From Xanthomonas sp. 10-10 (GTDB lineage: Bacteria; Pseudomonadota; Gammaproteobacteria; Xanthomonadales; Xanthomonadaceae): a DNA stretch of 64,000 nucleotides. The position numbers and the translations under genes are program-made. The first letter of the stretch is position 1, and every line of letters begins with the position of its first letter. Under the pieces are notes generated by a model. That model did no database searches, was not told the DNA's origin, and worked only from the letters and a program-made list of their open reading frames with translations. The stretch covers positions 124,001 through 188,000 of the forward strand of contig NZ_CP144460.1 in NCBI RefSeq assembly GCF_040182365.1, in the 5' to 3' direction. Shown here one piece after another: positions 8,469 to 33,734 of the stretch.

Positions 8469-8816
8469 CGGCTGGTGTGAACTGCTGCTATTAAGTGCAT
8501 TTTATAAGCGTATTCTACAAATAAAAATGGCAAAATTTAAAATGCAACCCCGAAACCGGGCCCCTCAAATTTTTGAGGAAAATAAACTGGTTTATACGCG
8601 ACGGTGAGCAGTGTGATAAATATATCTTGGGTAGTGGAGAAGGGGGTGTATGGTCGAATTTTGGTTGAAGCAAATAAAAATTAAATTTTATTATGCTTGC
8701 CGAATGGGCTTCTATTTCTCAGAGCGGGGGGCAATGCAAAAGGTTGCTATGTGACCGGAGTGACCTAAATGGGTGAAAGTAAGGGAATTATCGCCGAAGG
8801 GCTAATGGGGAATGTT
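8469..8816. other. AT-rich intergenic region with hairpins, upstream of the lectin gene
   Basis: GC drops sharply compared with the preceding gene. Two hairpins are visible. CCTCAAA/TTTGAGG with a 2-base loop spans 8563-8578. A 10-bp stem (GCA + AATAAAA paired with TTTTATT + TGC, one bulged A) spans 8670-8696. No gene is seen. The composition suggests acquired DNA together with the lectin gene. Confidence 0.55.
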
Positions 8817-10409
8817 ATGAATAAGCTAGTAAACATATTAGTAGCGTTTGTAATGATTTTTGCGTTAACATATTCGAAAGAAGCTTTCGCCCAACTTCAA
8901 ATATGCACTAATAGTGCCGTGCCAGAAGGATACGTAAAAACTGCATTGCAGCGCGCTTCGAACTGTGGCTCAGGTCTGGCATGGGCAGTGGAATCACCGA
9001 GCGAAGGGAAGTTGATCTGCCGTAGCTCAAAGATACCTGATCCTTATGTAATTACTCCTTATGGAGACAACAATACGACGGTTTGTGGCGAGTCACGAGT
9101 ACGTATCAATGCCGCCCGTAACAACATCACGATATGCTCTGACTCACCTATAGCTAAGAACTACGTGATAACAAACGTAAGTTCAGTTCCCCAAGGTTGC
9201 TTAGCGGGGCAATTTACAATCCAGCAGGCTCGTAATGGCATTCTGGGGTGCGGGAATAGCCCTACACCAGAGGGGTACGTCTTTACCTCAAACAGTGACT
9301 CATTGAATTGTGGTTCGCTACTTGGCACTACTCGGCGATATGAGCTGCCGCGAAACCAGATGCTGATTTGCGCTGACTCACCAGTGCCAAACGGGTATGT
9401 AATAACTCAGGCTTATAACAATAATGGCCAAACTTGCGATTTAGGGCAATATTTTATCCAGGTGCCCTACACCGGGATTGTGGTTTGCCCTGTATCTCCA
9501 ATTCCAAGTGGGTGGTACCAATCTGGAACGACTACTACAAATTCATGCACTAGCAACTTTCCGTCCGGACTTGTCCTCGCGAAAAATCCATCTCCTCCAA
9601 GCCCGCCCCCTACAACGCCCCCGACTCCTACACCGACTCCTTCGGTATTTGGAGCTCTTATCGGCATTGGCAATAAATGCCTCGATGTTGAAGGTGGGGC
9701 TAAGTCAAACGGTGCATCAATTCAGCAATATTCTTGTAATGGTAATGAGCAACAAATTTGGTCACTTGAAGCTGGTTCGGGGTACTTGCGAAGCGTTCCA
9801 AGTCAGCGTGTACTTGATGTGGCAGGATACGGCACAGCGAATGGATCCATACTTCAACTATTTGACCAATTGGGCGGGAAGAATCAACAGTGGAATTTCA
9901 CATTTGCATCAGTTGTTGGCATCAACGGGAAAGTCCTAGATGCCGTTAACGGCTCCAGCGCGAATGGTACTAAGCTGCAGCTATGGGATTGGTTGGGTAA
10001 CACTCAACAGCGATGGAACTATGATCCAATCAGCGGCGAAATTCGTGGGGTTGGTGGGAAATGCCTAGATGTTGAAAATGGTTCTACGGCTGACGGTGCA
10101 AATGTCCAACTATGGGACTGCAATGGCTTTCCACAGCAAAAGTGGAGACTCGGTCGTAATGGCTCAGTGCAGTTTGGTGGTAAATGTTTAGAGGTAGCTA
10201 ATGGTGAAGCAAATAATGGATCTCTGATTAGAATGTGGAGTTGCAACGCCGGCGCACATCAGCAGTGGCAGCTAATCGGAGAGCTTCGAAGCAATGCTAG
10301 CAACAAGTGTCTTGCCGATCCTGGCCGCGGCTCAGTGAATGGATCTAGGACATACATCTGGGAATGCACCGGAGATGCCAATCAAGTCTGGTCATATTCA
10401 GGATTTTAA
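8817..10409 (+). CDS. Secreted protein with six Cys-containing repeats and two ricin-B lectin trefoils
   Basis: 530 residues from the ATG at 8817, preceded by GGGGAA. The 25-residue signal peptide (MNKLVNILVAFVMIFALT..., cleavage near AFA/Q) argues against the longer in-frame start at 8769. Residues ~28-270 hold six degenerate repeats of about 40 residues with the pattern [IVG]C-x-x-S-x-[IVT]-P-x-G-Y-V-[IFK]-T. A Pro/Thr linker follows (SPPSPPPTTPPTPTPTPS). Residues ~305-530 hold six QxW motifs (QIW, QQW, QRW, QKW, QQW, QVW), i.e. two ricin-B beta-trefoils, which bind glycans. No catalytic domain is recognisable. It is probably extracellular and may bind host or bacterial glycans. Its GC content is visibly lower than that of its neighbours. 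Confidence 0.8.
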   Translation: MNKLVNILVAFVMIFALTYSKEAFAQLQICTNSAVPEGYVKTALQRASNCGSGLAWAVESPSEGKLICRSSKIPDPYVITPYGDNNTTVCGESRVRINAARNNITICSDSPIAKNYVITNVSSVPQGCLAGQFTIQQARNGILGCGNSPTPEGYVFTSNSDSLNCGSLLGTTRRYELPRNQMLICADSPVPNGYVITQAYNNNGQTCDLGQYFIQVPYTGIVVCPVSPIPSGWYQSGTTTTNSCTSNFPSGLVLAKNPSPPSPPPTTPPTPTPTPSVFGALIGIGNKCLDVEGGAKSNGASIQQYSCNGNEQQIWSLEAGSGYLRSVPSQRVLDVAGYGTANGSILQLFDQLGGKNQQWNFTFASVVGINGKVLDAVNGSSANGTKLQLWDWLGNTQQRWNYDPISGEIRGVGGKCLDVENGSTADGANVQLWDCNGFPQQKWRLGRNGSVQFGGKCLEVANGEANNGSLIRMWSCNAGAHQQWQLIGELRSNASNKCLADPGRGSVNGSRTYIWECTGDANQVWSYSGF

Positions 10410-21801: not shown

Positions 21802-22278
21802 ATGCGCGCCTTCTTTCTCTATGTTGCAGCGCCTTCGATTCTGCTGTCGGCGTTGGCAACCGCCCACGCAGCCCCGGCCGCTGAGTTATGCGAGGTCTTG
21901 CGCGCCTTTGTCCGTGCAGTACAGCCGGGACAGACACGCAGCTTTGCGTTCCGCACCTCGTGGGGAACCAACTTCAAGCATGCGCAAGAGCAGGCGCTTT
22001 CCGCCAAACGGTGTGAGCACAGTGGAGACCCCGCCGCGCAGGCCGTCTGCGCCTACCTGATGCAGCATGGGCAAACAGAGTTTGCAGACGCCACGGTAAT
22101 GGACTCGGTGTCCTGCCTATCGAGCGGCACCACATTTGATAGCAGCCTGAGACTGCATAGCGCCGAGCTGTCCTTTCGTCATGAGGCCATCAACGCAGGC
22201 GCGACGGTCACAGTCACCTTTGGCGAAGATACGGAACAGGGCGGCATGGTGTTTCGACTTCAGTCAGAAGGCGACTAG
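21802..22278 (+). CDS. Hypothetical secreted protein
   Basis: 158 residues from ATG 21802. An in-frame GTG at 21775 would add nine residues ahead of the signal peptide and is less likely. The signal peptide is MRAFFLYVAAPSILLSALAT, with cleavage near AHA/AP. The mature protein has four cysteines (ELCEVL, KRCEH, AVCAYL, SVSCLSS) that could form two disulfides. Probably periplasmic. I do not recognise the family. Codon use is like the host genes. Confidence 0.6.
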   Translation: MRAFFLYVAAPSILLSALATAHAAPAAELCEVLRAFVRAVQPGQTRSFAFRTSWGTNFKHAQEQALSAKRCEHSGDPAAQAVCAYLMQHGQTEFADATVMDSVSCLSSGTTFDSSLRLHSAELSFRHEAINAGATVTVTFGEDTEQGGMVFRLQSEGD

Positions 22279-22647
22279 CGCCGCCCGAGATGTCCTTAAA
22301 GGACGAAGGCCCGACGGTAATTGCCGGGTATCGATGGGAATGTTGTTGGGATATGGACGTATACACCGCTGTCGCCGGACTCTAGGCAAGCAATGTGAGG
22401 GATGCGGCGCGAGCAAGGCGGACTCGTGCGCAAGGCTCTAGGCCCGAAATTACGACGTAAACCAAAGCCTTGTCGAGCAGGTCTGTCAGAGGAAAAGTCA
22501 TTTCCAGGCCTAAGCTATCGCGTGCCCTAGAGGCGTAGTGGTGGGCGAATCTGTCGCTGCAACTACATGGAATGAAGTAAGTTGCCGTGAGCAAAGCCAA
22601 AGCCCTACATTTTCTACAGAACAAGTTTATTAATTCGGAGAATATGA
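22279..22647. other. Intergenic region upstream of the trypsin-like protease
   Basis: 369 bases that pass from host-like GC on the left to AT-rich on the right, marking the left edge of the low-GC protease/retron block. No gene or clear RNA structure was recognised. Confidence 0.4.
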
Positions 22648-23499
22648 ATGCCGCGTCAGCTCACAACATCCGAGCAGCTTGCTCATAGTACTGTTCGTAT
22701 TGAATGCGTTCTATCGAATGGACAGATAGGAACAGGGTCTGGGTTTTTCTTTAACTTTTTGAAGGAAGGAGAACGATCCGTGCCGGCAATTGTTACCAAC
22801 AAACATGTCGTTTCTGGGGCGGAAGCCGGCGTTATCTACGTAACTAGAAAAGATGCCAATGGCGATCCGTTAATGAGAGAATATATAGAAATTAAGATAG
22901 ACCGCTTTGAAGAAAGATGGTTGCTTCATCCTAATCACGATGTAGATCTTTGTATCCTGCCAATCGCTGGACTAATTGAAGAAATGGAACGGGCGGGTCA
23001 TCTTCTTTTTTTTAGAACACTGGACGAATCACTAATTCCGAGCAAAGAAGAGTTGGACGATCTAGGTGCTCTTGAAGATGTAATTATGCTGGGATATCCA
23101 AACGGTATATGGGATAGCGTAAATAATATGCCGATAATTAGAAGGGGGGTTACTGCAACACATCCTAATTTAGACTATGAGGGCAGAGGTGAATTCATGA
23201 TCGACGCTGCGTGTTTTCCTGGTTCAAGTGGATCCCCTGTATTGCTTTACAACGATGGACACTGGAATCAACGAGACGGTAATGTAATGATGGGAGGGCT
23301 GCGGATCAAATTGCTAGGTCTTTTATACGCTGGCCCGCAGCATACAGCTTCAGGCGAAATCGAGATTGTAAATGTACCGACTCAACAGCGTGCTATCTCT
23401 ATATCTCGAATTCCTAATAATCTGGGGCTAATCATAAAGGCGTCGCGAATTATGGAGATGGAAGCCGTACTGCGAGATCTGATGCGAACTGCCAAATGA
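22648..23499 (+). CDS. Stand-alone trypsin-like serine protease
   Basis: 283 residues with CGGAG upstream of the ATG. The chymotrypsin-fold triad is readable: His53 in IVTNKHVVSG, Asp in HDVDLCIL (residue ~100) and Ser194 in FPGSSGSPVLL; GTGSGFF near residue 30 starts the fold. There is no signal peptide, so it is probably cytosolic, unlike DegP-type enzymes, and there is no PDZ domain. It is AT-rich and converges on the retron RT-protease gene, whose own protease domain is of the same superfamily; only 142 bp separate the two stops. A role in the same defence module is inferred from position and shared fold only. Confidence 0.75.
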   Translation: MPRQLTTSEQLAHSTVRIECVLSNGQIGTGSGFFFNFLKEGERSVPAIVTNKHVVSGAEAGVIYVTRKDANGDPLMREYIEIKIDRFEERWLLHPNHDVDLCILPIAGLIEEMERAGHLLFFRTLDESLIPSKEELDDLGALEDVIMLGYPNGIWDSVNNMPIIRRGVTATHPNLDYEGRGEFMIDAACFPGSSGSPVLLYNDGHWNQRDGNVMMGGLRIKLLGLLYAGPQHTASGEIEIVNVPTQQRAISISRIPNNLGLIIKASRIMEMEAVLRDLMRTAK

Positions 23500-23565
23500 T
23501 ATTGCTTTGCTCGGACCATGCCGGGGAATATTGGTGGTTCGAAAGCGGATGAGTACCTGCTGTAA

Positions 23566-23590
23566 AATTAACCTTGTTAATTGATTTTTT
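23566..23590 (+). terminator. Hairpin/T-tract between convergent protease genes
   Basis: AATTAAC-CTT-GTTAATT (23566-23582) is a 7-bp stem followed by TGATTTTTT. The A-run on its left gives a T-run on the minus strand, so it may terminate both the protease and the retron transcripts. Confidence 0.55.
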
Positions 23591-23641
23591 AGAGAGGCTA
23601 GCTGAGGCTATAATCGGGCCTGTCTTCACGAGGATCTGAAG

Positions 23642-25414
23642 CTATGGATTGGAATTTATTTCATTCAGCCACTTGTCAAGCTCCTCTACAGAGAGGCATT
23701 CATCAGTACCGCGATCTTGGCTAGCACCGCGCAACGCCACTCCTACAACCCCGAAGCTTTCATCGACATAAGGCCCGCCGCTATAGCCAGCTCTTATCGT
23801 TGATGCAATCTCGAACCTACTCAAGCCTTGCCTTGGGTAAGTGTTGTTTACATAAGTTGGAACAATATTTGCCGAGCGCCCGGGGCTATAATCTGGGTAC
23901 CCGATAAGTAGCCCCCTGTCACCTGACTTCGCCTGAGAATGTGCTGCAGTGAGGTGCCTTGTTGAGAGAGGAGGAGCGTCGAATGCAAGTAAGGCGAGGT
24001 CGCGATGCTGATCGTAATTCAGAAGTGTTAAGTCGTGTCTTGCGTTTGCATGATCAACAGCAAAGCACTTAAGTTTATCTATGTCGCTCGAATTTATATG
24101 GATGGCAATGTCTTCCACAAGATCATAAAAGACGTGATCACATGTTATTAGTCTATTATTGTTATAAATAAAGCCAGTGCCTTGGCCGCCTACATGTGAA
24201 ACAACGCCAGTGGATGGGCTAACATAATCCCCCTCCCATACAACGACGAAACAGGCTTTGCGAAGTTCAGTTTCCGTCCTTACGATTGGGTAAGCTTTCA
24301 GCGCTTTTGTTATTCCATCTGTAGCCGCATTAAAGCGGTCTGCAAAACGATTATAAAGTACGTCTTCATCGCCTCTCACCATTTTCACAAATAGAATTTT
24401 CCCCCTTAAGTAGTTTGCTAGCTCAGGAATGTAATTGGGGTTTCTAAGCGATCTATAATTCAGAGCCTGAGAGATGCCGTTTTTATTTTCAAAGCTAGAC
24501 TTCCAGAGCGAGTTTGCATTCGAGTAGCCGTGTTTCTCGCAGGCATTTAAGGCGCCCCTTATCTCGTCTAAGAATTTGCGCCTGACATTTGGAAATCGAT
24601 TAACCTTTAGTCCAGTTACTTCCATTCTTCTATGGCGCGTACTCATACGAGTTTTTTCTGGATTGATCTCAAATCCGTTTTTTCTTATTGTCTCTTGAAG
24701 TTCAGCTCCAAGGGTCAGAGATCCTGAATCAAACGAGCAAATATTTTCTGGTATGGCTGCTGAAGTTCTTACGGAAAATGAAAAGGTGATGTCATCTACA
24801 TATCGAGTATAGGTGGCCCTGTGTCGCCTTGCCAAATCAATTAGATCTCGATCGAGCGAACGCGCAATTATGTTAGATATATAAGGGGATGTTGGAGCTC
24901 CTTGCGGCAGCGTGTTTCTAAACGTGCATATGTGTGCTGCCAATGATGCAACTTGGTGGGAAAACCCAAAAATGGGAGAGGAAAATAATCCTCTGACACG
25001 ATAAAAGGTAATTGATGGGAAGAAGTCCTCCAGATCAAGATTTAATATAAAGCCCGCTCTTTGCTGGCAATGTGCTTTGGCGTTGCTGACAATGCTTCTG
25101 TTAAGCCGAAATCCATGAGCGCTATTTTTAGGCTCGGGACCAACATTCAAAAGATATTTTAGCAGCTGCCTTTGAATATTTTTTAGGGTCAATCTAGGTG
25201 AATAAATCTGCCTCAGTCCACCTGTTTTTTTCGGGATTTGGAAGGCTCTATATTGCTGAGCAGGATATATCTCACCTTGGATACTATCGTAGCCGACCCC
25301 AAAAACGTGCATTGAAAACCTAGCTACGTCGCTCCTGGCTAAAGCTTCATTCAAGTTATCCAAGTCATCTATATTAATCAAGTGCCGCCTCGGCTGTCTT
25401 TTACATATACCCAT
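23642..25414 (-). CDS. Retron reverse transcriptase fused to a C-terminal trypsin-like protease
   Basis: 590 residues. Residues ~40-340 are a retron-type RT: NAKAH (111-115, the retron NAxxH motif), catalytic Asp127 in LNLDLEDFF, QGAPTSP (171-177), YVDD (205-208) and VTG (266-268, the retron VTG motif). Residues ~385-590 are a trypsin-like protease: His427 (TCDHVF), Asp472 (HRDLALLAF) and Ser545 (RAGYSGGPYV). Retrons make a branched DNA-RNA and act in anti-phage defence; here the effector appears to be the fused protease. A candidate msr-msd RNA lies 5 bp upstream. Sampled GC is near 40%, far below the host genes, which points to transfer. It could instead be a non-retron defence RT, but both retron hallmark motifs are present. 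Confidence 0.88.
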   Translation of the reverse strand: MGICKRQPRRHLINIDDLDNLNEALARSDVARFSMHVFGVGYDSIQGEIYPAQQYRAFQIPKKTGGLRQIYSPRLTLKNIQRQLLKYLLNVGPEPKNSAHGFRLNRSIVSNAKAHCQQRAGFILNLDLEDFFPSITFYRVRGLFSSPIFGFSHQVASLAAHICTFRNTLPQGAPTSPYISNIIARSLDRDLIDLARRHRATYTRYVDDITFSFSVRTSAAIPENICSFDSGSLTLGAELQETIRKNGFEINPEKTRMSTRHRRMEVTGLKVNRFPNVRRKFLDEIRGALNACEKHGYSNANSLWKSSFENKNGISQALNYRSLRNPNYIPELANYLRGKILFVKMVRGDEDVLYNRFADRFNAATDGITKALKAYPIVRTETELRKACFVVVWEGDYVSPSTGVVSHVGGQGTGFIYNNNRLITCDHVFYDLVEDIAIHINSSDIDKLKCFAVDHANARHDLTLLNYDQHRDLALLAFDAPPLSTRHLTAAHSQAKSGDRGLLIGYPDYSPGRSANIVPTYVNNTYPRQGLSRFEIASTIRAGYSGGPYVDESFGVVGVALRGASQDRGTDECLSVEELDKWLNEINSNP

Positions 25415-25419
25415 CGCGT

Positions 25420-25563
25420 CCCACGTTGCGACACTGTGCGCAGAGCGCGGATTACCTCAACACAAGGACCGCGTTAACGCAGCCCAGATTAAGCATCAGC
25501 CGAGACGGCTTACCGATTGTAGCCAACTGATTTATTTTTGTCGCCCTGAGATCGCAACGCAGG
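25420..25563 (-). ncRNA. Candidate retron msr-msd RNA
   Basis: Read on the minus strand, CCTGCGTTGCGA (25563-25552) and TCGCAACGTGGG (25431-25420) pair over 12 bp (eight consecutive Watson-Crick pairs, two G-U, two more G-C). This is the a1/a2 stem that encloses a retron RNA. The enclosed ~120 nt fold into several hairpins: AGCCG/CGGCT; CGCGG-CCT/AGG-CCGCG in the msd half; GCGC/GCGC. The RNA ends 5 bp before the RT start, the standard position. The stem and location are seen; the branching G and the reverse-transcribed part are not determined. Confidence 0.72.
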
Positions 25564-25628
25564 CTGATTTTTAATGCCATCAAGTCGCCGTATGGACTCT
25601 CATCCAGCGATAGAATTGATCGGTTCAC

Positions 25629-26069
25629 TTATCCACCCTGACACCGCTGCCAACCACCGCCAGTAGCAGACACCTGCTCCCACCCGTTGCGCAGCCGCTT
25701 CATCGCTTGTCCGCCCACACACGCATAACCCAGTTGTTTGGCTTCGGCGGTGCCCAGACCAGGCAGCGCGATGATGGAATCCGAAGGCGCAGGGCGCCCT
25801 TGGCGCTGCGCTTCGCTAAGTAGAGTCACGTTTTCGATGCTCTGGCAGTAACGCACCATGCCCGGGCGCGTGCGGTATTGCTCACAATTGAAGGGCGTTG
25901 TGTCACGCGCCATGGAGTTATGCGGCTGCCGCACTGGCGGAATGTAAGTGTACGTGGACTTTCCCGTGGACGAGCGCATGCTTTGTGCAGGTGCACCATG
26001 TGCGCACGCAAGCATGCACAGCGCGGCCAATGTCAGCGCACCGCGGCGCGCGGTGGTGTTCCAATCCAT
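25629..26069 (-). CDS. Secreted hypothetical protein, copy 1
   Basis: 146 residues with a signal peptide (GALTLAALCMLACAHGAPAQ). The C-terminal half (SDSIIALPGLGTAEAKQLGY, then CVGGQAMKRLRNGWEQV) is nearly identical to the gene at 33045-33491. The homology extends about 60 bp upstream of the start and a few bases past the stop, so this is a duplicated gene with its promoter. Conserved cysteines (FNCEQYR, RYCQ, ACVGG, RCQGG) suggest disulfides in the periplasm. Family unknown to me. Confidence 0.7.
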   Translation of the reverse strand: MDWNTTARRGALTLAALCMLACAHGAPAQSMRSSTGKSTYTYIPPVRQPHNSMARDTTPFNCEQYRTRPGMVRYCQSIENVTLLSEAQRQGRPAPSDSIIALPGLGTAEAKQLGYACVGGQAMKRLRNGWEQVSATGGGWQRCQGG

Positions 26070-26187
26070 GGTGTTCCCTCTGTACGCACCGATCCTAGCC
26101 CACCTATTGCAATTGCGGGTGGTTCAGTTCGCTTATCATTGAGGCGCCGGTGCGTGTATTGCTTTACGCATGCGTCAATGCACGCCG

Positions 26188-26409
26188 CTAACGCGCAGCA
26201 CCCAGATCCTCCAGTACATCCTCCACCTGCTCGGCCAGGTGTTGCAGGCAATGCGCCCATTGCTGCAGTGGAATCGTCGGCGTCCCCAGCGAGCCTTCGT
26301 CACGGGCGCGCGGTGCGGCCAAGGTGGCGAGCAGGCGTAGTTGGTCGCGTACGCGCAGCAGGTGGTACTGCGTGCCTTCGGACATCCAGTAGCCGGTTTC
26401 GTCGTGCAT
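26188..26409 (-). CDS. XAC0095-family small protein
   Basis: 73 residues from ATG 26409, with AAGGAGAG 5 bases upstream; a longer in-frame start lacks such a site. The sequence YHLLRVRDQLRLLATLA ... HCLQHLAEQVEDVLEDL matches my recollection of the XAC0095 family of Xanthomonadaceae, small helical proteins of unknown function. It is preceded by a structured leader (26433-26484) and a C4-like RNA (26579-26630), both in the same orientation. Confidence 0.65.
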   Translation of the reverse strand: MHDETGYWMSEGTQYHLLRVRDQLRLLATLAAPRARDEGSLGTPTIPLQQWAHCLQHLAEQVEDVLEDLGAAR

Positions 26410-26432
26410 GCCGCTCTCCTTGCCGTGAGGCA

Positions 26433-26484
26433 GCTCCCGCTGCACAACGCAGCGGGATGCCGGGAGGCTAGAAACCGCACACAG
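26433..26484 (-). promoter_or_regulatory. Structured leader of the XAC0095 gene (copy 1 of a shared leader)
   Basis: Read on the minus strand, the block starts with CTGTGTGCGGTTTCTAGCC and ends in a perfect 8-bp stem CCCGCTGC/GCAGCGGG with loop GTTGT. It closely matches the leader of the SymE-like gene at 26940-26992. The GGTTTCTAG part is complementary to the C4-like RNAs. Confidence 0.65.
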
Positions 26485-26578
26485 CCGGCGGGCTTATTCC
26501 CCTTGCGGGTATTTTATTCGCCGCCCTCCCGGCGTAGGAACGCCGAGCAGTGCCAAGCCAGATGGCCGAGCACAAAAG

Positions 26579-26630
26579 ACCCACCAAAACTCGGAGGTGG
26601 GTACCGCTGTGTGGGGAGTTTCTAGGCTCC
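26579..26630 (-). ncRNA. C4-like small RNA, copy B (facing the XAC0095 gene)
   Basis: On the minus strand GGAGCCTAGAAACTCC-CCACACAGCGG is followed by ACCCACC-(10 nt)-GGTGGGT and a short T-run (CTTTTG). It is an inverted copy of 26793-26850. From memory this resembles phage P1/P4 C4-type immunity RNAs, which lie upstream of, and pair with, their target leader; that is exactly the arrangement here. Confidence 0.55.
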
Positions 26631-26792
26631 GGCTGGAAGTGTGCGGGTGGCGCAGGGCAGGGTCAAGCTGAGGTGACTGTCTGGGTGCGGAGAAGCCACC
26701 TACATAAAAGAATTTTCCGGCTAAGCGCAGCACTCCAATGGGTCGCTGCAACCAGTTGACACACCACTCAACGCGTAGCAATCTCGCTGCAA

Positions 26793-26850
26793 GGAGCCTA
26801 GAAACTCCTCACACAGCGGCACCCACCTCCGTCAGACCGGTGGGTTTTTT
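26793..26850 (+). ncRNA. C4-like small RNA, copy C (facing the SymE-like gene)
   Basis: GGAGCCTAGAAACTCCTC (from 26793) continues into CACACAGCGGC, then ACCCACC (26821-26827) pairs with GGTGGGT (26839-26845) and is followed by TTTTTT, a good intrinsic terminator. Three blocks (GGAG, CTAGAAAC, CACACAG) are complementary to the leader at 26940-26961 further along the same transcript direction. Confidence 0.58.
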
Positions 26851-26939
26851 GTGCCTGCAGTTTCTTGCAGGCGTAACCGGCGTGACACCTGCGTCGGAAA
26901 GCGGCGAATGCGAATCCCTTTCGGAAAAGGGCCTGCCGT

Positions 26940-26992
26940 CTGTGTGTGGTTTCTAGCCTCCCGACATCCCGTTGCGTCGTGCGACGGGGCTT
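26940..26992 (+). promoter_or_regulatory. Structured leader of the SymE-like gene (copy 2 of a shared leader)
   Basis: It starts CTGTGTGTGGTTTCTAGCC and contains the 8-bp stem CCCGTTGC/GCGACGGG (26968-26988) with loop GTCGT. Relative to copy 1, one pair changes C-G to U-A and another U-A to U-G, so pairing is kept. The Shine-Dalgarno AGGAGG lies 12 bases downstream of the stem, at 27001-27006. Confidence 0.65.
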
Positions 26993-27014
26993 GTTCGTCT
27001 AGGAGGGCTTTGCC

Positions 27015-32498: not shown

Positions 32499-33038
32499 GT
32501 GAAAATTCTTAACTCGTTGATGGATAAGCTGGACAGCATCAGTTCCTTGACGATGCTCTGCATAAACTCGGTACTGTGCGTATTTGTGCTGCTTGCGCAT
32601 GGGGGCGCCCTGCTTTTGGTAAGGACCGGCAAGGTGCCGGAGATGGCGCAGGAGGTTGCGATTGCCTACGTCTCCATTCCTGCCGTGATCGTTGCATTGG
32701 CATTCTCGGCGCTGGCCTTGATTCGACGAGAAAAGCTTGTAGCCGCGCTCAAAGTCCATGCTGTCATGCTCATGGGCCTTGCTGCCTACACGCTTTATGT
32801 TGGCCTTGACGTAGTCTTCAATGGCGTGCCAAGCGGCAGCAGATTCAGCTGGGATCCCACTCTGTTTGCGGTTTTTCTGGGATATCCGTTCTTGCTGATC
32901 AAGCGGGCATTCCCGTGGTCAGGGTTTAGCCGTGCGCCACTGCGCTTCGCTCCGGTGCTAGCGGTAGGGATTTCATTTCTGATCAGCATGGCGGTTTCTT
33001 GGCGGATGTTCGCCTTGTTCAGGGCTAGCGTAGAGTAG
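32499..33038 (+). CDS. Hypothetical four-helix membrane protein
   Basis: 179 residues starting at GTG 32499; an in-frame ATG at 32520 is equally possible. Four hydrophobic segments are visible (around LCINSVLCVFVLLAHGGALL, IPAVIVALAFSALALI, AVMLMGLAAYTLYVGL, and FAPVLAVGISFLISMAV). Inner membrane, family unknown. It ends 6 bp before the stop of the duplicated secreted gene, which it faces. Confidence 0.55.
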   Translation: MKILNSLMDKLDSISSLTMLCINSVLCVFVLLAHGGALLLVRTGKVPEMAQEVAIAYVSIPAVIVALAFSALALIRREKLVAALKVHAVMLMGLAAYTLYVGLDVVFNGVPSGSRFSWDPTLFAVFLGYPFLLIKRAFPWSGFSRAPLRFAPVLAVGISFLISMAVSWRMFALFRASVE

Positions 33039-33044
33039 GTTCAC

Positions 33045-33491
33045 TTATCCACCCTGACACCGCTGCCACCCACCCGCAGCAGCCGATACCTGCTCCCATC
33101 CATTGCGTAGCCGCTTCATCGCCTGCCCGCCCACGCAGGCATAGCCCAGTTGTTTGGCCTCTGCCGTGCCCAGGCCCGGCAGCGCGATGATGGAATCCGA
33201 TGGAGCGGGACGCCCCTGGCTGCGTGCCTCCTTGCGCAGCATCATGTTCTCGATGCCCTGGCAGTAACGCACCATGCCCGGATGCGGGTGCGCGCGGTAT
33301 TGCTCGCAATTGAACGGCGTGGTGTCGCGCGCCATCGAGTTGTACGGCTGCCGCGTCGGCGGGATGTACTTGCTGTTCGCCTTGCCTGTGGCTGAGCGCA
33401 TGCTTTGTGCGTAGACGCCTTGCCCGCACGCAAGCACACACAGCGCTGTCAGTATCAGCGCGACGCCGCGCGCGGTGGTCATCCTGTCCAT
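33045..33491 (-). CDS. Secreted hypothetical protein, copy 2
   Basis: 148 residues, paralogue of the gene at 25629-26069, with a signal peptide (ALILTALCVLACGQGVYAQ) and the same cysteines. The last ~55 residues differ at only two positions from copy 1. Flanking DNA (GGTTCAC next to the stop; GCACCGATCCTAGCCCACC upstream) is shared. Same orientation as copy 1, so the two form direct repeats 7.4 kb apart. Confidence 0.7.
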   Translation of the reverse strand: MDRMTTARGVALILTALCVLACGQGVYAQSMRSATGKANSKYIPPTRQPYNSMARDTTPFNCEQYRAHPHPGMVRYCQGIENMMLRKEARSQGRPAPSDSIIALPGLGTAEAKQLGYACVGGQAMKRLRNGWEQVSAAAGGWQRCQGG

Positions 33492-33734
33492 GGTGCTCCC
33501 CCTGTCCGCACCGATCCTAGCCCACCCATCGCCGGCGTGGGTGGTTCAGTCCGCTTGGTGCTCAGGGTCTGAATCTGGCGACCGTCGCCTCTACGACGCA
33601 AGGATGCCCGCGACGTCAGATAGGCCACCTCAACCGTGTGCCCGGCATCTGGCGCCACGCTTGTGGCGACTGCAATGGCCCTTGCCGCGCAGGGCACTGC
33701 GCCACATCGGGTGGTGCTTGCTTCCTGCCTCACA

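What the first reader, a model, noticed from the sequence alone, without database searches (positions are those of the whole stretch)
23642..25563. Retron with RT fused to a trypsin-like protease and a recognisable msr-msd RNA
The RT has both retron hallmarks (NAKAH, VTG) and YVDD, plus a C-terminal protease with a full His427/Asp472/Ser545 triad. Directly upstream, a 12-bp a1/a2 stem encloses ~120 nt of hairpins ending 5 bp before the start codon. Retrons with a fused protease have been reported as a class, but which signal activates such a protease and what it cleaves is poorly known. The block is near 40% GC in a GC-rich chromosome, so it looks acquired.
Basis: partly seen in the sequence, partly recalled or inferred. 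Interest (0 to 1): 0.9.

Follow-up and report, generated by a model that had tools for sequence, protein, structure and literature searches.

The report
Retron with reverse transcriptase fused to protease

Summary
The protein claim holds: a retron RT (NAKAH, YVDD, VTG) fused to an HtrA-like serine protease with an intact triad, matching PADLOC RT-Protease_XI (E = 1.8e-161). The RNA claim needs correcting. A covariance model built only from two distant homologues' RNAs finds one place in the window, 25509-25384 minus (E = 2.4e-11). There a 13-bp stem (25509-25497/25396-25384), 6 of its pairs changed on both sides in a relative, encloses 100 nt. A -10-like box lies 6 nt upstream of a1. The RT's Shine-Dalgarno lies inside a2; the likely start is TTG 25381, not ATG 25414. 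Retron and an independent protease (PDC-S45) fill a low-GC block in a variable region where relatives carry Gabija, GmrSD-like or dCTPase-family genes. It is a new member of a known kind. The unusual point is family-wide: Ec67-like loci have G directly after a1 (23 of 23); type XI RNAs mostly do not (3 of 23), and 13 of 23 carry UUAA(C/U/A), so priming may not use guanosine. Activator and substrate are unknown.

The parts
25516..25544 (-). promoter-like site: -35 GCGACA 25544-25539, 17-nt spacer, -10 TACAAT 25521-25516; predicted start of transcription about 25509, the first base of a1
   Evidence: a consensus match only: 4 such sites found in the region, 5.5 expected by chance. A -10-like hexamer 3-10 nt before a1 occurs in 13 of 23 type XI loci against 10% of 2000 random upstream places
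25497..25509 (-). a1 arm GCCGTCTCGGCTG
   Evidence: pairs over 13 bp with a2, -26.8 kcal/mol; 0 of 300 shuffles as strong; covariance-model hit; 6 of 13 pairs with a both-sided change among the window, L013 and L029, 4 of 13 broken or gapped in one sequence
25486..25493 (-). CTTAATCT, identical in the window, L013 and L029; holds no G; lies near where a priming guanosine would be expected
25466..25485 (-). msr hairpin GGGCTGCG-TTAA-CGCGGTCC
   Evidence: CGTTAACG identical in the three RNAs; predicted in their consensus fold, with 3 of its 8 pairs broken in one sequence
25397..25465 (-). rest of the RNA: further msr and the msd template, ending in TAAAAGA (25403-25397) just before a2; where DNA synthesis starts and stops is not known
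   Evidence: inferred from position; AAAG identical in the three RNAs
25384..25396 (-). a2 arm CAGCCGAGGCGGC, with the Shine-Dalgarno-like GAGG (25391-25388) inside it
23642..25381 (-). RT-protease gene from the likely TTG start (579 aa); as listed from ATG 25414 it is 590 aa. Residue numbers below are those of the 590-aa reading
24602..25237 (-). reverse transcriptase domain (residues 60-271); NAKAH 111-115, YVDD 205-208, VTG 266-268
23738..24181 (-). trypsin-like (HtrA-type) protease domain (residues 412-559): His427 at 24136-24134, Asp472 at 24001-23999, Ser545 at 23782-23780
22287..25621 (.). low-GC block (about 45.5% GC) in a variable region; it holds PDC-S45 and the retron
   Evidence: left flank shared with four relatives to 22284-22286; in G001 the right flank resumes at 25624 and runs on to 28861
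22648..23499 (+). neighbour, not judged part of the retron: a separate Trypsin_2 protease, PADLOC PDC-S45, convergent with the retron
   Evidence: not found beside the 20 other type XI loci, some with short flanks; present without an RT match in another genome of the genus

Best explanation
It is a retron of the RT-protease class (type XI in PADLOC). One transcript starting near 25509 carries a folded RNA (a1-msr-msd-a2) followed at once by the gene for the RT-protease. The RT part binds the RNA and copies part of it into DNA. The RNA-DNA product, bound to the fusion protein, holds the HtrA-like protease inactive, as msDNA is proposed to hold the Toprim domain of the related fusion retron Eco2 inactive. 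When a phage enzyme damages or alters the product, the protease is freed and cuts one or more cell or phage proteins, stopping growth before the phage is released. Shown here: the gene, both active sites conserved, the conserved RNA with a stem changed on both sides, and the setting among defence genes. Inferred: DNA synthesis, inhibition by the product, phage triggering and abortive infection. The substrate is unknown. No partner gene recurs next to the type XI loci I compared, so I favour a general target, or a host or phage protein encoded elsewhere.
For: Family: PADLOC RT-Protease_XI E = 1.8e-161, far above the next model, RT-TIR_XII, 4.2e-103. Tree position with protease-fused retron RTs, 100/98 and 100/99. 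RNA: covariance-model hit E = 2.4e-11; 10 of 35 consensus pairs with both-sided changes among three sequences. Both enzymes conserved: RT aspartates in 143 of 143 rows, protease Ser in 142 of 143. Fold: the best solved matches are retron Eco2 (E = 1e-21), then, for the protease part, HtrA/DegS (from 2.4e-11). Setting: Gabija, a GmrSD-like gene or a dCTPase-family gene in the same region in relatives. Precedents: Eco2 as a self-inhibited fusion retron apparently triggered by DenB (PMC12405507: abstract and sections 5, 9, 12); other retrons triggered by phage methylase, exonuclease, SSB or RecBCD inhibitors (PMC12409349, passages); trypsin-like proteases fused to other defence proteins that activate a partner nuclease (PMC12799240: abstract, introduction and passages).
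Against: No msDNA was seen or could be sought. No priming G stands at the usual place in most relatives. Rfam has no retron match over 22000-27000, and the msr/msd boundary is unknown. 4 of 13 a1/a2 pairs are broken or gapped in one of the three aligned RNAs. Type XI rows did not form one clade in my tree: 5 changes, weak deep forks. Two type XI loci, L116 and L010, gave no clear a1/a2. The model's pTM is 0.54, so how the domains are arranged is unsure.
Confidence: 0.78

Rival explanations
1. The RNA is the one the first reader drew: stem 25563-25551/25432-25420, RT start at ATG 25414.
For: The 13-pair complementarity is real, -20.2 kcal/mol, and a fold of 25400-25600 alone uses it (but 29 of 200 shuffles of that stretch fold at least as well).
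Against: The covariance model puts the RNA at 25509-25384. 9 of 300 shuffles hold a stem as strong. Under a cut of -11 kcal/mol L029 has no second stem, and L013 has only two weaker ones (-13.3, -12.5), not placed alike. The 5' arm lies upstream of the promoter-like site. The stem crosses the conserved one.
Confidence: 0.05
2. A two-protease cascade: the retron protease activates (or is checked by) the convergent PDC-S45 protease beside it.
For: The genes adjoin, with 142 bp between stop codons and the same GC of 44.2%. Protease-triggered effectors are known in other defence systems (PMC12799240).
Against: PDC-S45 was found beside none of the 20 other type XI loci examined (flanks from almost none, downstream in L014 and L020, to about 6 kb). 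It occurs in G016, which has no RT match. The genes are convergent.
Confidence: 0.08
3. A non-retron defence RT: the RNA serves only as a bound regulator, and DNA is primed by the protein or made without the RNA, as in some DRT systems.
For: The usual priming G is not conserved.
Against: NAxxH and VTG are kept. a1/a2 architecture and loop length match the Ec67-like loci (98-114 nt there, 100 nt here). The best PADLOC and NCBIfam models are retrons, the NCBIfam ones below their cut-offs; Drt models score far lower.
Confidence: 0.09

Closest known systems
Type XI retrons (PADLOC RT-Protease_XI, PDLC02959/02960)
   Same: single-gene fusion of retron RT and trypsin-like protease; near full-length match E = 1.8e-161
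   Different: no difference seen in the protein; whether the RNA of this class has been described could not be checked, because Mestre et al. 2020 is not held
Retron Eco2/Ec67 (type I-C, RT-Toprim)
   Same: closest solved structure; RNA directly upstream, a1/a2 stem and a loop of about 100 nt
   Different: effector is Toprim, not protease; G directly after a1 in all 23 Ec67-like loci, not here; where an in-frame start was found after a2 it lies mostly 12-36 nt downstream, here 3 nt
RT-TIR retrons (type XII)
   Same: second-best PADLOC model, RT part only, residues 51-366, E = 4.2e-103
   Different: TIR effector instead of protease
Protease-activated pro-nucleases of Hachiman, AVAST, Lamassu and some DRTs (PMC12799240)
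   Same: trypsin-like protease fused to a defence protein
   Different: there the protease is N-terminal with a nuclease gene beside it; here it is C-terminal and no recurring neighbour nuclease was seen
HtrA/DegS/Deg proteases
   Same: fold of the C-terminal domain
   Different: no PDZ domain among Pfam matches up to E = 1; fused to an RT

Membership tests
retron | RT with NAxxH, YxDD and VTG | tested here: met
   present in the window; N, H and both aspartates 143 of 143; VTG: V 138 (I 5), T 143, G 142
retron | RT groups with retron RTs | tested here: met
retron | upstream RNA with a paired a1/a2 stem conserved in homologues | tested here: met
   at 25509-25384, not where first placed
retron | priming guanosine next to a1 (usually TAGC; CAGA in Ec67) | tested here: inconclusive
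   not conserved: the first base after a1 is G in 3 of 23 type XI RNAs. The window has a G three bases after a1 (25494), where L013 and L029 both have A. Se72 also lacks an apparent one (PMC6868368, passages)
retron | production of msDNA | not testable with these tools
   needs expression and gel or sequencing
type XI (RT-protease) | trypsin-like protease fused C-terminal to the RT, triad intact | tested here: met
type XI (RT-protease) | RT in one clade with other type XI RTs | tested here: inconclusive
   close clade 100/99 (11 rows), but all 31 type XI rows need 5 changes on the tree; one origin not ruled out
anti-phage defence system | protects against phage | not testable with these tools
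   only the setting among defence genes speaks for it

The most novel reading that the evidence does not exclude
RT-protease (type XI) retrons as a group have given up the priming guanosine: where TAGC stands in classic retrons most of them carry UUAA(C/U), so their RTs start DNA from an adenosine 2'-OH, or by another route such as self-priming, and make a product with a new kind of RNA-DNA junction (or none).
Probability: 0.3. Interest if true: 0.75.

Novelty: new member of a known kind. Interest (0 to 1): 0.48.

Why it matters
The class is common in sequence databases: the 120 best relatives listed all carry both domains. Yet in the library searched here I found no paper naming its RNA, trigger or substrate (searches; most subscription papers and Mestre et al. 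2020 are not held). The missing priming G makes a basic question directly testable: whether 2'-5' priming by retron RTs requires guanosine.

Tried and rejected
Rejected: PDC-S45 as a partner. Rejected: a recurrent partner gene such as an MBL nuclease. All-against-all comparison of the ORFs in the flanks of 21 loci gave 30 cross-locus pairs after most RT-protease frames were dropped. What remained were unfiltered RT-protease frames, shadow frames inside them, a terminase and other genes shared by L018/L019, a D12 DNA adenine methyltransferase shared by three loci on viral contigs (L015, L016, L020; 1.4-3.3 kb from the RT; Pfam), and single pairs. I take these as phage genes; the methyltransferase was not followed further.

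Tried without result: Rfam over 22000-27000; a MAFFT alignment of 17 divergent type XI RNAs, which did not line up a2; closer relatives' DNA. P0002-P0005 (60-63% identical) are known only as proteins. The order search gave 1 of 397 genomes at E up to 1e-70, the window's own; the order of G1147 gave 1 of 394 at E up to 1e-120, G1147 itself; the class 3 of 369 at 1e-60, own included; the phylum 8 of 398 at 1e-90, of which four, own included, match over nearly the whole profile. The genome-contig scan gave one locus. The tblastn of P0034 against plasmids gave no match at 1e-60.

Weak points. The broad a1/a2 comparison is partly circular, because arms in the other loci were picked for complementarity (own mean -20.5, swapped mean -5.8 kcal/mol over 18 loci). 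In L065 and L134 the assigned stem is not the strongest one, and in L022 it is interrupted and was placed by likeness to L015. For L013 2 of 300 and for L029 3 of 300 shuffles reach their stems. The independent test is. 'SD inside a2' is not general: by eye, 6 of 18 loci (window, L014, L016, L017, L020, L095). The Ec67-like set was chosen as loci with a strong stem and a loop of about 100 nt, plus L115: 27 loci given, 23 Ec67-like (some near-copies), 3 of another type (L021, L023, L030), 1 broken RT-TIR (L114). Twelve of the 23 fell in one clade with an annotated Ec67-family protein; the others were classed by architecture only.

Papers opened without a useful passage on this class: PMC12548924, PMC13405049, PMC8867640, PMC7159879, PMC13236601, PMC8934634 (it lists Trypsin_2 among domains occasionally found near RT genes).

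Full report
What is there. The minus-strand frame 25414-23642 codes for one 590-residue protein. Residues 60-271 match RVT_1 and 412-559 match Trypsin_2. PADLOC's RT-Protease_XI models match almost the whole length (E = 1.8e-161 and 1.1e-160); the next models, RT-TIR_XII and RT-Toprim_I-C, match the RT part only. The window and 35 database relatives (36 rows) all hit the same two models, and other retron RT models as well. In 143 aligned rows (window, 120 database proteins of which P0001 is the window's own copy, 22 loci) His427, Asp472 and both RT aspartates are kept in 143 of 143 and Ser545 in 142 of 143; the exception is a copy cut short beside an IS3 element. An AlphaFold2 model has mean pLDDT 87.4 and pTM 0.54. 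Its best solved matches are retron Eco2 RT-Toprim, and for the protease part HtrA1/DegS. A tree of 57 RT domains puts the window with P0002-P0005 (100/98) inside an 11-row set of protease-fused RTs (100/99). Twelve Ec67-like RTs form their own set (100/100). The 31 type XI rows as a whole are not one clade in that tree (5 changes), but weak deep forks do not rule out a single origin.

The RNA, corrected. The two cross, so they cannot be nested together. In the same upstream region of relatives I assigned one stem close to the gene start in 18 type XI loci including the window: 8-19 bp with loops of 90-133 nt in 17, and an interrupted one in L022. Five more loci found later have one too (L117, L119, L134, L139, L188); L116 and L010 gave none that is clear. 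In most the assigned stem is the strongest in the region; in L065 and L134 it is not. In the window it is the first stem above. Of 300 dinucleotide shuffles of the window's region none reaches -26.8, and 9 reach -20.2; the corresponding stems of L013 and L029 are reached by 2 and 3 of 300.

The independent test. I built a covariance model from only L013 and L029, whose proteins are 47% and 43% identical to the window's, giving it the a1/a2 stem and one hairpin. Searched over both strands of the 64-kb window at E up to 10 it returns one place, 25509-25384 minus, model positions 1-132 of 132, 58.9 bits, E = 2.4e-11. Over 28 sources it finds L013, L029, the window and one weak 19-nt match, so it is a model of this subclade, not of all type XI RNAs. 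In the three-sequence alignment 10 of 35 predicted pairs have changes on both sides, 6 of them among the 13 of the a1/a2 stem; 4 of those 13 are broken or gapped in one sequence. Two stretches are identical in all three: CTTAATCT (25493-25486) and CGTTAACG inside the first hairpin.

Start of the transcript and of the gene. A -10-like TACAAT ends 6 nt before a1, with a weak -35 17 nt upstream (25544-25516, a consensus match only, no more than chance for the region). A similar -10 within 3-10 nt of a1 occurs in 13 of 23 type XI loci, against 10% of 2000 random upstream positions (some loci are close relatives). ATG 25414 lies between the template and a2. TTG 25381 has GAGG six bases upstream and lies close to the N-termini of P0004 and P0005 in the alignment. 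P0003, listed with a longer N-terminus, keeps CKRQPRRHL there, nine of nine like the window; I read this as translated RNA, because P0002, P0004 and P0005 lack it. The Shine-Dalgarno thus lies inside a2. If the stem forms, it should hide it, so RNA that has folded for priming would not be translated. That is inference, and the arrangement holds in about 6 of 18 loci.

How it probably works. By analogy with Eco2, a fusion retron held in a self-inhibiting trimer by its own msDNA and apparently triggered by the phage nuclease DenB (PMC12405507: abstract and sections 5, 9, 12), the RT-protease should be inactive while bound to its RNA-DNA product and active once that product is damaged. Other retrons are triggered by a phage methylase, exonuclease, SSB or RecBCD inhibitors (PMC12409349, passages). 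HtrA proteases also work as trimers (recalled), so an Eco2-like assembly could gate the protease; this is speculation. The protease target is unknown. In Hachiman and AVAST a fused trypsin-like protease activates a nuclease encoded next door (PMC12799240: abstract, introduction and passages). Here no such neighbour recurs across 21 loci; the only family shared by three loci is a D12 DNA methyltransferase in phage-type contigs, 1.4-3.3 kb away.

Setting. The window lies in one contig of a 5.17-Mb genome. Of 35 genomes searched in the genus only this one has the full-length gene; 7 others have partial RT matches at up to 41% identity. The left flank is shared with four relatives up to window 22284-22286. 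Beyond that point the window differs, while three of the relatives go on in common for about 0.8-1.5 kb before they part; the window's junction is therefore a break in a shared backbone, and the relatives' cargo begins further on. That cargo includes Gabija GajA and GajB in the same-species genome G006 (3.2e-212, 8e-180), a GmrSD-like gene in G001 (GmrSD_N 1.2e-28; PADLOC HEC-06 2.2e-35) and a dCTPase-family gene in G009 (9.8e-122); the G034 gene scanned gave no PADLOC hit. In G001 the right flank resumes at window 25624 and runs on to 28861; in the others the right side matches other parts of the window or was not found. The gene at 25629-26069 belongs to a family repeated near 33037. The retron shares its block with PDC-S45, a second trypsin-like protease (3.8e-117). 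PDC-S45 was found beside none of the 20 other type XI loci (18 after removing duplicates; flanks from almost none to about 6 kb). It occurs in G016, which has no RT match, so I treat it as a separate cassette.

The odd point: no conserved priming G. Classic retrons prime from a G next to a1, most often in TAGC and in Ec67 in CAGA; Se72 is an exception without an apparent one (PMC6868368, passages). In Eco1 changes around that G are poorly tolerated (PMC11754653, passages). In 23 of 23 Ec67-like loci the base directly after a1 is G. In type XI it is G in 3 of 23 (L014, L018, L093). Thirteen of 23 carry UUAA(U/C/A) starting 5-7 bases after a1, and 5 of those 13 have no G at all between a1 and the motif (L012, L013, L015, L022, L065); 8 of the 13, the window included, do have one. 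The window's G is at 25494, where L013 and L029 both have A. So the usual priming base is not conserved in sequence, and the motif reads like TAGC with A for G. The reading could fail if the functional helix end differs from my drawing, if priming uses a G inside a1, or if lineages differ: 10 of 23 lack the motif as searched, among them L096 with UUGAC and the group of L016, L020, L095 and L117 with GCAUAC, GCACUC or GCAUGC. This is why the claim stands as the novel case at 0.3, not as the finding.

Known or new. The class is known: PADLOC carries models for it, and PMC12405507 mentions protease-fused retron RTs in one sentence. Ten searches of the held library found no paper on the RNA, trigger or substrate of this class (I saw listings and, for the papers named, passages or sections), but the founding classification paper is not held, so I cannot say that the RNA is undescribed. 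I file the locus as a new member of a known kind.

Noticed in passing
22648-23499 (+): A second, free-standing Trypsin_2 protease (PADLOC phage-defence candidate PDC-S45) convergent with the retron; found without an RT match in another genome of the genus.
   Followed up: yes
22286-25622, and L110-L113: Variable region in this genus: Gabija, a GmrSD-like gene or a dCTPase-family gene begin within about 2.5 kb beyond the window's left junction in relatives.
   Followed up: partly
25622-26147 and 33037-33556: The right flank of the block lies in a gene family repeated further along the window and in relatives; repeats may help cargo exchange by recombination.
   Followed up: no
26451-26533 (-), weak 26893-26973 (+): sRNA-Xcc1 (Rfam RF02221), E = 1.1e-13, with a second sub-threshold match (E = 0.97) on the other strand.
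   Followed up: no
8769-10409 (+): Another low-GC stretch (48-53% per kb) holding a 546-aa protein with repeated QQWN-type motifs, like a ricin-type lectin (recalled).
   Followed up: no
L002 and L003 (G034, G008): RTs with 588- and 590-aa open frames, 41% identical over about residues 52-296 only: probably other retron types elsewhere in the same genus.
   Followed up: no
L011 (G070): A type XI RT-protease with an in-frame stop beside an otherwise well-formed a1/a2 RNA; described only.
   Followed up: no
L021, L023, L030: RT fusions of about 500-550 aa whose a2 starts with GAGGG and whose a1 is followed by UAG; the Shine-Dalgarno may lie in a2 there too.
   Followed up: no
L015, L016, L020: A D12 DNA adenine methyltransferase gene 1.4-3.3 kb from the type XI RT in three viral contigs; probably a phage gene, but other retrons are triggered by phage methylases.
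   Followed up: partly
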